Shown here piece after piece: positions 1-8,310 of a stretch of DNA of 39,299 nt. The DNA lies in the IMG/VR virus record IMGVR_UViG_3300037247_000531, positions 1 to 39,299 of that record. One strand, given 5' to 3'. Position 1 is the first letter of the stretch; every line of letters starts with the position of its first letter. The notes beneath the pieces are model-generated. The model made no database searches and was not told the origin of the DNA. It saw nothing but the letters and a program-made list of their open reading frames with translations. This DNA comes from a virus. The position numbers were made by a program, and so were the translations under genes.

Positions 1-36
1 CGGGATCGTATAGCCGTTGACTTGCAGGAAGGGCAT
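1..36 (-). CDS. 5' end of a tail gene (partial)
   Basis: Only the first 12 codons lie in the window, starting MPFLQVNGYTIP. The ATG at 36 follows a GGTGAG ribosome binding site. It sits directly downstream of the tape measure gene, where siphoviruses encode the distal tail protein or a baseplate protein. The assignment rests on position plus the general resemblance of the N-terminus to phage tail proteins. The rest of the gene lies beyond the left edge. Confidence 0.55.
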   Translation of the reverse strand, partial: MPFLQVNGYTIP

Positions 37-130
37 CGTTACTCACCATCACAATGCGAATCGTCACTCACCATCGCATACGGCATCGTTCTCACCACCG
101 CATACGGTATCGTCGCTCATCATCACGCAC
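33..130 (-). repeat. Tandem 24-26 bp repeats before a gene start
   Basis: About four imperfect copies of a 24-26 bp unit lie between the tape measure stop and the ATG at 36. On the minus strand each unit carries a GGTGAG-like Shine-Dalgarno element followed by ACGAT, for example GATGGTGAGTAACGATGCCC in the last copy. The copies start near plus positions 33, 56, 82 and 106. The unit therefore duplicates the initiation region of the downstream gene. Confidence 0.7.
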
Positions 131-4758: not shown

Positions 4759-5107
4759 CGTCTTCGCCCTCCGTCACGCTTGCGCTTGGCGTGTAGTGCT
4801 TGCCGTCCCAGTCGGACATAGGTGGGCCGTCGTTGGTCAACAGGCCGCTGTGATCCCCGTCGCCGCTGTCGGCCTCGTCTGGTGTCGGCTCGTGCTCCCG
4901 AGTCTGCTCGGGATCCTCGGGCCATTCGGCCACGTTGTCATCCGACGCTGGGCAGGCGATCCCCGCGTCGACCCATTCCTGGGCCAGATCGGCAGGCACG
5001 CGACCCGACGGGTAGAAGCCGGAGCCGTACTTGCGTACGGCCGCGGTTTCGTTTCCGTCCTTGTCGAGTACCGGCCGGCTTTGTTTGTCTCTGAGATAGA
5101 TCCTCAT
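4748..5107 (-). CDS. Small acidic structural-region protein
   Basis: A 119-residue protein with ATGA overlap to the gene before it. The N-terminal half is basic and folded-looking (MRIYLRDKQSRPVLDKDG, then YGSGFYPSGRVPADLAQEWVDAG). The C-terminal half is very acidic and proline-rich. The first half resembles short phage connector-region proteins seen next to head-tail joining genes, but I cannot name a family. Confidence 0.7.
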   Translation of the reverse strand: MRIYLRDKQSRPVLDKDGNETAAVRKYGSGFYPSGRVPADLAQEWVDAGIACPASDDNVAEWPEDPEQTREHEPTPDEADSGDGDHSGLLTNDGPPMSDWDGKHYTPSASVTEGEDDGT

Positions 5108-5346
5108 GATGTGCTTTCCTTTTCCTTGGCACGTCTGCGCGCGGACGAAATCAGCTTTTCTGGATCATCGTCCGGGTCGGCATACCCGGCGAAACCGTCC
5201 ATCTCGTGAGCTGGTCTCAAGACACCGTCGTCATCGGCGACAACCCCAAATGGGATGGTCTCGACGCACCAAAACGCTACTTGGCGAGAGACACCGCCGT
5301 GGTCCAGCAAAAACACTGCGCGCCATCCTAGAGCTGCTGAAATCAT
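5104..5346 (-). CDS. Hypothetical protein in the tail gene cluster
   Basis: An 80-residue protein. I place the start at the ATG at 5346, which overlaps the tail terminator stop (ATGA), and not at the longer upstream frame. It contains FLLDHGGVSRQVAFWCVET and ends in a charged helix. The family is not recognised. The tight coupling on both sides supports a real gene. Confidence 0.7.
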   Translation of the reverse strand: MISAALGWRAVFLLDHGGVSRQVAFWCVETIPFGVVADDDGVLRPAHEMDGFAGYADPDDDPEKLISSARRRAKEKESTS

Positions 5347-5750
5347 GGCGTGTCCTCGTACATCATCTCCACGGTGTACGACCACTCGTACCGACCACCG
5401 GCATCCTGGGGGAGCGGGATTGGAGCAGCCGTAAGATTCCTGACGTTGAAGTATCCCGAGATCGTAGCGTGCTCGGTGAACGAGAAGATCGAATCAGTGA
5501 AGTCCTTACCCCCGTCGTAATCGTCCTTGTCGCCGCGGGTCCTGACCTGAACTTCCGCGAAGACGGTGCGCTTCGTGCTCCCGTTATCGGGTTCTGCTGC
5601 CGGACCCCCGCCTTCAATGCAAAAGACCGCCTTGGTTGCGTAACCATCTTCCGGCGGGCGCACCGGCCCGTGGAAACAATTTGTTCCCAGGGTAGCGGCG
5701 GCCACGCCCACGCCGATTGCAGTGGCCAGGTCTACGGCGGCTTCTTTCAT
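5343..5750 (-). CDS. Tail terminator / minor capsid-like protein
   Basis: A 135-residue protein. Its middle (KAVFCIEGGGPAAEPDNGSTKRT, then VFAEVQVRTRGD) and closing strand (YEWSYTVEMMYEDTP) match the layout of tail terminator and Phage_min_cap-type proteins: a conserved CxExGGxP-like turn, a VQVRTRG strand, and a late YxWxYTVE strand. It follows the HK97 gp10-like gene, as expected. The ATG at 5750 is the third of three repeated ATGA-linked starts. Confidence 0.7.
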   Translation of the reverse strand: MKEAAVDLATAIGVGVAAATLGTNCFHGPVRPPEDGYATKAVFCIEGGGPAAEPDNGSTKRTVFAEVQVRTRGDKDDYDGGKDFTDSIFSFTEHATISGYFNVRNLTAAPIPLPQDAGGRYEWSYTVEMMYEDTP

Positions 5751-5809
5751 GCCTTACTCTTCCCGGCGCCCTTCATGGACTACTCTTCTGGGCTTCTTTC
5801 ATGCCTTAC
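5739..5809 (-). repeat. Repeated start region with two 9-codon mini-ORFs
   Basis: A 19-bp sequence, GTAAGGCATGAAAGAAGCC on the minus strand, occurs identically at 5791-5809 and 5739-5757. A diverged middle copy starts at 5776, giving a 26-bp period. The result is a chain: gp10-like stop overlapping ATG 5802 (MKEAQKSSP, stop), overlapping ATG 5776 (MKGAGKSKA, stop), overlapping the true tail-terminator ATG 5750. Each junction is an ATGA. Confidence 0.85.
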
Positions 5810-6242
5810 GATTCTCCGAGGGCCGTGTCGGCAGTTCCTTGGGCACGCCGCGCCAACTGATGTTGCGTCGTGCGTTCTCTTTGGCCTTCTTCTGGATCCA
5901 GCGCGTGTAGCCGCTCTTATGGCGGTTGACTGGATCGCTCAGAAAATGATCCTTACCGGTGGGATGATTGCGCCCGCGGATCTCGTGCACCTCTGGTCCG
6001 TACTTCTTGCCGTACCCAAGCTCCACTTCGGGATCTCTGAGGCTCTTTGGTGGCGCCACGTAGGCCGAGCCCTTCAAGAATCCCTTATCGACCGGAACCT
6101 CCTTGGTGGAATCCGCCATGATGGCAAACCCCTTCTGGTAGATCGCCGCCGCGATATTCCCACGGGTCTCGTCGCTCGCCTTGTTCATCTGCTTTCGCAG
6201 TTGGGCGAGTCCCTTGACCGTTGTTTTGATGAGGATGCTCAT
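5799..6242 (-). CDS. HK97 gp10-like neck/minor tail protein
   Basis: A 147-residue protein with the layout of the HK97 gp10-like family: an N-terminal KGLAQLRKQMNKASDETRG helix, a KEVPVDKGFLKGSAYV motif (residues about 47-62), then GYGKKYGPEVHE and a C-terminal helix. The V-P-V-D-x-G-x-L-x-x-S pattern is diagnostic. It bridges head completion and tail attachment. The order, after the stopper and before the terminator, agrees. Confidence 0.85.
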   Translation of the reverse strand: MSILIKTTVKGLAQLRKQMNKASDETRGNIAAAIYQKGFAIMADSTKEVPVDKGFLKGSAYVAPPKSLRDPEVELGYGKKYGPEVHEIRGRNHPTGKDHFLSDPVNRHKSGYTRWIQKKAKENARRNISWRGVPKELPTRPSENRKA

Positions 6243-6251
6243 GTTACACGC

Positions 6252-6575
6252 TCACAAAAACAACCCATACAACGTCAGGTCGGCACTGGGTGTGGCCTTC
6301 TCGGTCCACCCAACGATCTTGCGCGCCTCGTTGCCCTTGGTCGTATCGTCACCGGGCAACCAGATGCGCGCCTTGCGGGGGATGTTGGTTTCGGTCGTCA
6401 CCTTCGCTTTGACGTCCACCTCAACACCCTGGGAGTTGCGCGTTTTGAACAACCCGAACTCGACGCGGGCCGCGGCCGTACTCTGGCTGCCCCACGTCGG
6501 ATCTCCGCTGTTGTTTTTGGTCGTCCACGTGGCCCACGTGACCGTCTGCGTGAGCAAATGCGAGACGCGGCTCAT
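6252..6575 (-). CDS. Head closure / stopper-like protein
   Basis: A 107-residue protein beginning MSRVSHLLTQTVTW behind GAGGGGGCGAGC. The start at 6575 is preferred to the longer frame because of this ribosome binding site. It is beta-rich and follows the gp6-like connector, as head-tail stoppers (gp16/FII-like) do. The family is assigned by size and order, helped by the ITxxxxxVE-like middle region. Confidence 0.65.
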   Translation of the reverse strand: MSRVSHLLTQTVTWATWTTKNNSGDPTWGSQSTAAARVEFGLFKTRNSQGVEVDVKAKVTTETNIPRKARIWLPGDDTTKGNEARKIVGWTEKATPSADLTLYGLFL

Positions 6576-6600
6576 GCTCGCCCCCTCTTTGCACAGCACC

Positions 6601-7482
6601 TCATGCAAACACCGGCCTGACGTACGCTTCGATCTTGGACGCCACTTCGATCGGCATGCCCACCGCAATGATCTTGCTACTGGCATAGGACGCGGCCCAA
6701 CTGTCGAGCTTTTCTGAAACGATGGACGGGTTGCGCGGTCCCCACTTGTACCGCATCGCGGTGAACATGATCGCCGCGTCCTCGAGATCTTCGGGCAGGG
6801 TCAGATTGACGGTGACCTCCACGGCGTTCTCATCCGCGGCGCCCGCACTGCTGAAGTCGGTTGATGCGATGGTGAACGTCTTGGTATCCCAGGACGTATA
6901 GTCAACATCCAGCCAGGCGCCCGAGTCGAGCAAGATCTTGATCGCCCCGGTGTCCGGCGTGTCGGTCGGGATTGTTTCGTTGATGACTACTGCCGTAACC
7001 GTTCCGCTAGTGAGCGCGCCGTTGAGAGTGCCGGTCACCTGATTGCGGGTCCTATACCCGCCGGCATAGGTCACCCGATACATTGACTCCTCGGTACCAG
7101 GCAGGGGGAACGAGGTCATATACTGACCGCGGGCGACCGACCACGTCCACCCGCCCGCACGGTAGATGCGGCCCTGATTGACGTTATCGATCTGGTATTC
7201 GCTCGAGTCGATTATTTCCGCGGCGTCTTGGGGATCGTAGACAATCGAGCCAATCGAAAGCAGGGGGCGCTTGGGCGTGAAGATTGCCGGGTAGCCGTAG
7301 CCCTTGAGGTCGTCGATGCGAGCGGATTCATAGTGGAAGCTGGGGGCGCCGCAATACTTGGCGATCTCGGCGGACGCCGCCTCAATGAGGCGCTCTATAC
7401 GGAGCGTGTCGCTGCCCGCACTGATCCCGAGCTCGGTTTCTACTAGGGCGAGAGTACACAGCGCTTTTGCCGACAAGGTCAA
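6601..7482 (-). CDS. gp6-like head-tail connector with inserted beta domain
   Basis: A 293-residue protein with a TTG start placed 5 nt after AGGAGG. The N-terminus (residues 13-50, ALVETELGISAGSDTLRIER, then AASAEIAKYCGAP) and the YRVTYAGGY and LPEDLEDAAIMFTAMRYKWG blocks match the phage gp6-like connector family. About 82 residues (145-226) are inserted between those last two blocks, rich in Thr, Gly and Asp and probably a small beta sandwich. The connector forms the ring below the portal. Confidence 0.8.
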   Translation of the reverse strand: MTLSAKALCTLALVETELGISAGSDTLRIERLIEAASAEIAKYCGAPSFHYESARIDDLKGYGYPAIFTPKRPLLSIGSIVYDPQDAAEIIDSSEYQIDNVNQGRIYRAGGWTWSVARGQYMTSFPLPGTEESMYRVTYAGGYRTRNQVTGTLNGALTSGTVTAVVINETIPTDTPDTGAIKILLDSGAWLDVDYTSWDTKTFTIASTDFSSAGAADENAVEVTVNLTLPEDLEDAAIMFTAMRYKWGPRNPSIVSEKLDSWAASYASSKIIAVGMPIEVASKIEAYVRPVFA

Positions 7483-7500: not shown

Positions 7501-8310
7501 CTACTTTTTGGCGGCCTTCTTCTTGGCGTCAGCTTCCGCCTTGGGGTTCTCGTCGGGCTTCAGCTCTGCCTTCACCTCTGCCTCAAACTTGGCCTTCTCG
7601 TCGGCATCGATCTCCGCCTCTGCCTTGGCGTCCTTGGCTTTCTCCCCGGCTTCGATCTCCGCCTTGAGCGCAGCATCAAACTCGGCCTCGAGGGCGGCGT
7701 CGGACTTGGCCTCGGCTTCCTTCTTCGCCGCTTCCGCCTTGGCGTCCACTCCCTTCATGGCAGCATCGACCACCCGCCCGGCGCGCTGGTCGTGAACGGT
7801 CTTCTTCGCCGCCTCGCTCTCGTCGGCCTTGACCTTCGCCTTTGCATCCCGCCGAGCCCGCGCCTGGTCGACGAGATCTTGCGCGGTCACCTTCGGGCTA
7901 GGCTTCGGGGCGCCCTCGTATCGAGCCACGCCGGACTTGACCAACGCCGCAGCGACCTTCTTCGAGAAGCCGTAGACGTTCCCGTCGGCGAAGTAGTTGC
8001 GCCACGACTTGTTGAACGTGACGCCGACGATCTCGGCCGGGTTGATCCCAAGCCGACGGTTGAGCCCGGCCTGTGCCTCTCGGCGCAACAGCTCGCGAGC
8101 CTTTTCGATCGCCTCGATGCGCGAGGCGTAGTCGCCAACCGACATATCGGAATCCATGAGCTTGGATTCATCGGCTTCGAGGCCGTCGGGCGTGGTGGGC
8201 TTCTTGTCGAGGCTCCTGCTCTTGGCCTTGGCTTCTTCTTCCGACTTGGCCCTGGCCTTGTCGTCCTTCTCGGCTTCTGCCTTGGCCTTGTCGTCTTCCT
8301 TCTTGCCCAT
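7501..8310 (-). CDS. Charged low-complexity virion-region protein
   Basis: A 269-residue protein. The start at 8310 follows GGAGAGACGCC. Residues 1-40 and roughly 150-269 are Lys/Ala/Glu/Asp repeats predicted to be long helices or coiled coil. A folded core (about 55-135) contains SVGDYASRIEAIEKARELLR and NPAEIVGVTFNKSWRNYFADG. It lies between the decoration-like protein and the connector. A head or head-tail protein with extended tails is likely; the family is not recognised. Confidence 0.75.
   Translation of the reverse strand: MGKKEDDKAKAEAEKDDKARAKSEEEAKAKSRSLDKKPTTPDGLEADESKLMDSDMSVGDYASRIEAIEKARELLRREAQAGLNRRLGINPAEIVGVTFNKSWRNYFADGNVYGFSKKVAAALVKSGVARYEGAPKPSPKVTAQDLVDQARARRDAKAKVKADESEAAKKTVHDQRAGRVVDAAMKGVDAKAEAAKKEAEAKSDAALEAEFDAALKAEIEAGEKAKDAKAEAEIDADEKAKFEAEVKAELKPDENPKAEADAKKKAAKK

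What the first reader, a model, noticed from the sequence alone, without database searches (positions are those of the whole stretch)
5739..5809. Chain of two 9-codon mini-ORFs leading into the tail terminator gene
Three ATGs at 5802, 5776 and 5750 are linked by ATGA stops with a 26-bp period, and a 19-bp block is identical in first and last copies. The two mini-ORFs (MKEAQKSSP, MKGAGKSKA) mimic the start of the real protein (MKEAAVDLA). Ribosome binding sites before each are weak, so translation of the terminator may depend on repeated termination-reinitiation, lowering output of a protein needed in few copies.
Basis: partly seen in the sequence, partly recalled or inferred. Interest (0 to 1): 0.7.

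Follow-up and report, generated by a model that had tools for sequence, protein, structure and literature searches.

The report
Repeated stop-start junction before phage gene
In this phage a 26-base stretch covering the point where one gene stops and the next starts is present three times, leaving two tiny 9-codon reading frames that can hand ribosomes on to the tail gene; related phages have just one such junction, and the same kind of duplication occurs independently in bacteria.

Summary
On the minus strand, ATGA occurs at 5802, 5776 and 5750 with an exact 26-bp period. It chains an HK97-gp10-like gene, two 9-codon ORFs and a PF12691-like tail terminator gene. The closest relative found (terminator 83% identical) has a single GTGA junction and lacks these 52 bp. 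The next (61%) has a single TAGTG. Every other readable viral homologue has one -4 overlap. The array is therefore a lineage-specific tandem triplication of a conserved translational-coupling junction. Because 26 = 3k-1, every copy restores the -4 overlap, so the mini-ORFs can relay terminating ribosomes across a gap that, by published E. coli data, would otherwise nearly abolish coupling.

The same architecture arose independently: at livM-livG in Acidisphaera rubrifaciens (family relatives have single GTGA/ATGA junctions), in a Solirubrobacteraceae MAG, and, with unit number differing (2 vs 1), between related viral contigs.

Weak Shine-Dalgarno sequences are usual at this junction. The structure works like a MIRU (a repeat keeping -4 overlaps at an operon junction) but is not one. 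New variant of a known kind; modest interest.

The parts
5799..6242 (-). Upstream gene, HK97-gp10-like tail completion/neck protein (147 aa), ending in TGA inside the first ATGA
   Evidence: phrog_5 E 1.3e-7; PF04883 only weak, below cut-off; 76% identical to L002
5785..5810 (-). Repeat copy 1 (26 bp), CGTAAGGCATGAAAGAAGCCCAGAAG, holding the original stop and first ATGA
5773..5802 (-). Mini-ORF 1, MKEAQKSSP*, 9 codons, -4 overlap at both ends
5759..5784 (-). Repeat copy 2 (26 bp), AGTAGTCCATGAAGGGCGCCGGGAAG, the most diverged copy
5747..5776 (-). Mini-ORF 2, MKGAGKSKA*, 9 codons, -4 overlap at both ends
5733..5758 (-). Repeat copy 3, AGTAAGGCATGAAAGAAGCCGCCGTA, spanning the true start of the terminator gene
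   Evidence: start matches L002 and L030 homologues
5343..5750 (-). Tail terminator gene (135 aa), start ATG 5750
   Evidence: phrog_2595 connector E 9.6e-5; PF12691 Phage_tail_terminator_6 E 0.008, below gathering score; same N-terminus as L002

Best explanation
A single ancestral 4-nt stop/start overlap (DTGA) that couples translation of an HK97-gp10-like gene to the tail terminator gene was tandemly duplicated in this lineage, adding two copies of a 26-bp unit. Because 26 is one less than a multiple of three, the ATGA of each copy closes the ORF begun at the previous copy, so two 9-codon ORFs run without a gap from the upstream stop to the terminator start. A ribosome ending the upstream gene can reinitiate at ATG 5802, translate 9 codons, reinitiate at 5776, translate 9 codons, and reinitiate at 5750. 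The mini-ORFs act as a relay that keeps an old coupling working across a 52-bp insertion; their peptides need no function. Shown: the array, its absence from relatives, the conserved single overlap, and independent recurrence elsewhere. Inferred: the duplication mechanism, actual translation of the mini-ORFs, and the near-neutral effect.
For: Nearest relative L002 has one GTGA junction with the same gp10 end (the two proteins end the same number of residues after a shared LPTRP motif) and the same terminator start, lacking 52 bp. L030 has one TAGTG. All other readable homologous viral junctions, about 7 further distinct sequences, have a single -4 ATGA; annotated Arthrobacter phages have -1, -4 or -8 overlaps. 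In simulation, duplicating the single junction gives a chained ORF only for unit lengths of 3k-1, and then always. The same architecture is found at livM-livG in Acidisphaera rubrifaciens (L105), whose family relatives have a single GTGA or ATGA, in a Solirubrobacteraceae MAG before a TgpA-like gene (L059), and in viral contig L037 with two units where L048/L049 have one. In E. coli a 38-nt gap cuts reinitiation by 80-100% and the last 15 nt of an upstream gene suffice (PMC10666635), so a relay would matter and 9 codons are enough sequence.
Against: No expression data. The first ATG has a moderate SD-like motif and direct initiation at 5750 cannot be excluded. Only one close relative was found, so the ancestral state rests on L002, L030 and more distant homologues. 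A random unit length gives the chain one time in three, so phase alone is weak evidence of selection. Period-26 arrays are not in excess over period 28 in viral contigs (7 versus 7; 2 for period 25).
Confidence: 0.72

Rival explanations
1. Attenuator: each extra reinitiation step loses ribosomes, so two mini-ORFs were kept because they lower terminator output relative to the upstream gene.
For: Geometry fits. If the per-step efficiency is below 1, three steps pass fewer ribosomes than one. SD-like pairing at the second and third ATG is no better than at random positions.
Against: No relative keeps such a chain. The partner upstream is also a head-tail protein. The same chain occurs at unrelated cellular genes. 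Weak SD is common at this junction without mini-ORFs.
Confidence: 0.14
2. Enhancer/leader: short coupled ORFs deliver ribosomes and keep mRNA structure open at the terminator start, as bicistronic-design leaders do, raising output.
For: The predicted mRNA around the junction is structured in both window and L002. Coupled short ORFs are proposed to deliver ribosomes and are used so in biotechnology (PMC12548453). Longer repeats at M. tuberculosis rnc-fpg1 went with higher fpg1 mRNA (PMC2734929).
Against: The upstream gene already delivers ribosomes to the junction; neither mini-ORF has a good SD of its own except possibly the first.
Confidence: 0.07
3. Neutral slippage product, not translated as a chain; the terminator is initiated on its own at 5750.
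For: Copy 2 has diverged by 9-11 of 26 positions, so the peptides look unconstrained. Similar arrays without genes are common: of 116 arrays in the scanned loci only 8 are chained and lead into an ORF of 80 codons or more.
Against: The SD at 5750 is weak and the homologous junction is an overlap everywhere. All three ATGA and both frames remain intact, although chance retention is not improbable (0.74 per mini-ORF for no early stop).
Confidence: 0.06
4. Assembly artefact of a single-copy junction.
For: The relative has a single copy; raw reads cannot be checked here.
Against: The longest exact repeat is 19 bp and the copies differ; the 79-bp array fits inside a typical short read, and k-mers over 19 resolve it.
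Confidence: 0.01

Closest known systems
Termination-reinitiation (TeRe) at ATGA/TGATG overlapping gene pairs (Huber et al. 2019 PMC6728339; 2023 PMC10666635)
   Same: Each link is a canonical -4 overlap in a co-directed gene pair; the ancestral junction is of this kind.
   Different: Here the junction is triplicated, inserting two 9-codon ORFs between the genes.
Mycobacterial interspersed repetitive units (MIRU; Supply et al. 1997, described in PMC12548453 and PMC2734929)
   Same: A short repeat at an operon junction that carries an ORF joined to the next gene with a -4 overlap, so coupling survives the insertion; can be tandem and vary in copy number.
   Different: MIRUs are 40-100 bp, scattered over many loci, look mobile and are mycobacterial; here the 26-bp unit is found at one place in the window and is a copy of the local gene junction itself.
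Bicistronic design (BCD) leader cistrons
   Same: A short leader ORF whose stop overlaps the target's start delivers ribosomes to it.
   Different: Engineered with their own strong RBS at the transcript's start (own knowledge); these lie between two genes and have weak SD.
Minigene in the axe-txe operon (PMC8708949)
   Same: A natural mini-ORF in an operon affecting translation of the next gene in cis.
   Different: Two codons, not a tandem repeat and not described as an ATGA chain in the abstract read.

Membership tests
TeRe-coupled overlapping gene pair | Co-directed genes with -4 (ATGA) or -1 (TGATG/TAATG type) overlap | tested here: met
   Every link in the chain is ATGA; homologous junctions are -4 or -1
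TeRe-coupled overlapping gene pair | Translation of the downstream ORF depends on translation of the upstream one | not testable with these tools
   Needs reporters or ribosome profiling
MIRU | ORF in the repeat with DTGA overlap to the downstream gene | tested here: met
   Both mini-ORFs end in ATGA overlapping the next start
MIRU | 40-100 bp unit scattered at many loci of the genome | tested here: not met
   26-bp unit; no other place in the 39-kb window within 3 mismatches; 19-bp core absent from the viral contig collection
MIRU | Found in mycobacteria | tested here: inconclusive
   Host unknown; the only annotated-phage hits are distant, to phages of Arthrobacter and Microbacterium
Tandem duplication of a gene junction | Relatives have a single copy at the homologous site | tested here: met
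   L002 GTGA, L030 TAGTG, other homologues single ATGA
Variable-number repeat (VNTR) | Unit number varies among close relatives | tested here: inconclusive
   No relative closer than 83% for the window; shown only for the independent case L037 (2 units) versus L048/L049 (1 unit)

The most novel reading that the evidence does not exclude
Tandem duplications of DTGA gene junctions with a 3k-1 unit form a recurrent class of junction VNTR across phages and bacteria, in which the number of relay mini-ORFs sets the expression ratio of two coupled genes and can be tuned by gain or loss of units.
Probability: 0.15. Interest if true: 0.62.

Novelty: new variant of a known kind. Interest (0 to 1): 0.36.

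Why it matters
Published work says coupling fails once genes are more than about 20-40 nt apart. This locus shows how an insertion can sit inside a coupled junction without opening a gap: the duplicated overlap carries its own stop and start. It gives natural constructs with 1, 2 and 3 serial overlaps (the window against L002; L037 against L048; Acidisphaera livM-livG against its relatives) for measuring the efficiency of each reinitiation step, and it warns annotators not to start the terminator gene at the first ATG of the array.

Tried and rejected
No closer relatives were found: the terminator protein gave no hit in annotated phages and only L002 and L030 in viral contigs; one genome-contig scan with the two-sequence alignment gave none. 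The 19-bp repeat is absent from viral contigs. Controls with period 25 and 28 showed no excess of period-26 arrays, so general selection for the 3k-1 phase is not supported, though numbers are tiny. A further ATG..ATGA 9-codon ORF at 6268 before the upstream gene was rejected: it begins inside the end of the preceding gene and is not conserved in L002. Selection on the mini-peptides could not be tested (two short, diverged copies). The order of the duplication events (C1 resembles C3 more than C2) could not be resolved.

Full report
Observation. The window's genes in this region run on the minus strand. At the junction of the HK97-gp10-like gene (6242..5799) and the tail terminator gene (5750..5343) the sequence reads GTAAGGCATGAAAGAAGCCCAGAAGA GTAGTCCATGAAGGGCGCCGGGAAGA GTAAGGCATGAAAGAAGCCGCCGTAGA. 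ATGA occurs three times, 26 bp apart. The two intervening ORFs, MKEAQKSSP* and MKGAGKSKA*, each end in the ATGA that begins the next. TRF reports period 26 and 3 copies. The 19-bp identity of first and last copy is unique in the window, and 300 local dinucleotide shuffles never reached the observed period similarity.

Gene identities. The upstream protein matches phrog_5 (tail completion or Neck1, E 1.3e-7) and the downstream one phrog_2595 (head-tail connector, E 9.6e-5). PF12691 Phage_tail_terminator_6 is hit below its cut-off (E 0.008). Position, order and N-terminus agree with a tail terminator, but that label rests on weak profile matches.

Comparison. The closest relative found, L002, is 83% identical in the terminator and 76% in the upstream protein. 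Its junction is a single GTGA, the gp10-like protein ends at the same position, and the terminator starts VKESGVDLAT against MKEAAVDLAT. The window thus holds 52 extra bases, two 26-bp units. L030 (61%) has a single TAGTG. Of the more distant viral homologues, all with readable junctions have a single -4 ATGA (L004 and L008 run off their contigs and L015 is cut soon after the junction). Phages Waltz and Kovu have -4 and -1 overlaps, and Ottawa an 8-nt one. Coupling of these two genes by overlap is therefore old and conserved; the array is specific to this lineage.

Origin. Duplicating the single junction in silico gives a chained mini-ORF only when the unit length is 3k-1, and then always. Copy 2 has diverged most, so the array is not brand new. 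Its longest exact repeat is 19 bp, which makes an assembly artefact unlikely.

Recurrence. A scan of viral contigs for CATGAA three times at period 26 gave 7 stretches; L037 is a gene-start case with two identical mini-ORFs (MNREGFEQP*) leading into a 206-aa gene. L048 and L049, identical over the first 35 residues of that gene, have one unit: unit number changes between relatives. In a collection of 84,980 prokaryote genomes the same pattern gave 107 stretches. Among the loci read, 8 arrays were chained and led into an ORF of 80 codons or more (this count includes L037). Two of these start exactly at an upstream ORF's -4 overlap: Acidisphaera rubrifaciens livM-livG (L105) and a gene pair in a Solirubrobacteraceae MAG whose second gene is TgpA-like (L059). 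Family relatives of L105 have a single GTGA (L163) or ATGA (L164) at livM-livG, the same +52-bp pattern as in the window. Period-25 and period-28 controls in viral contigs gave 2 and 7 stretches, none leading into an ORF of 80 codons.

Mechanism. In E. coli a 38-nt gap reduces reinitiation by 80-90% in two gene pairs and abolishes it in a third, and the last 15 nt of an upstream gene suffice for coupling (PMC10666635). A 52-nt insertion without ORFs would thus be expected to uncouple the terminator; the chained mini-ORFs leave no untranslated gap. I take the relay as the most likely function and the effect on output as unknown.

Known kinds. The chain works like a MIRU, which sits at start codons with a -4 overlap so that coupling survives (PMC12548453), and like engineered bicistronic leaders. 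It is not a MIRU: the unit is shorter, local, and a copy of the junction itself. I found no paper describing serial duplication of an ATGA junction, but only open-licence papers were searched.

Noticed in passing
window 5104..5346 (-): An 80-aa DUF6253-like ORF lies between the terminator gene and the next gene with an ATGA overlap at both ends. L002 lacks it there (the terminator joins MRIYL... directly by ATGA), and its 48%-identical homologue in L030 lies after the major tail protein gene (6412..6657): a whole gene apparently moved into a -4 junction without breaking the chain.
   Followed up: partly
L037 (IMGVR_UViG_3300042924_005333) versus L048/L049: Two versus one 26-bp mini-ORF units before the same gene start; the downstream protein is identical for 35 residues and then unrelated, so the gene's body was exchanged behind a conserved start.
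   Followed up: partly
L105 2433..2510: Acidisphaera rubrifaciens livM-livG junction with two 26-bp mini-ORFs (MNLASEVRP, MNLASEARP), absent from family relatives.
   Followed up: yes
window 32..124 and 7558..8302: Other degenerate tandem repeats: a 25-bp array near the window's start and Ala/Lys-rich coding repeats in the 285-aa ORF.
   Followed up: no
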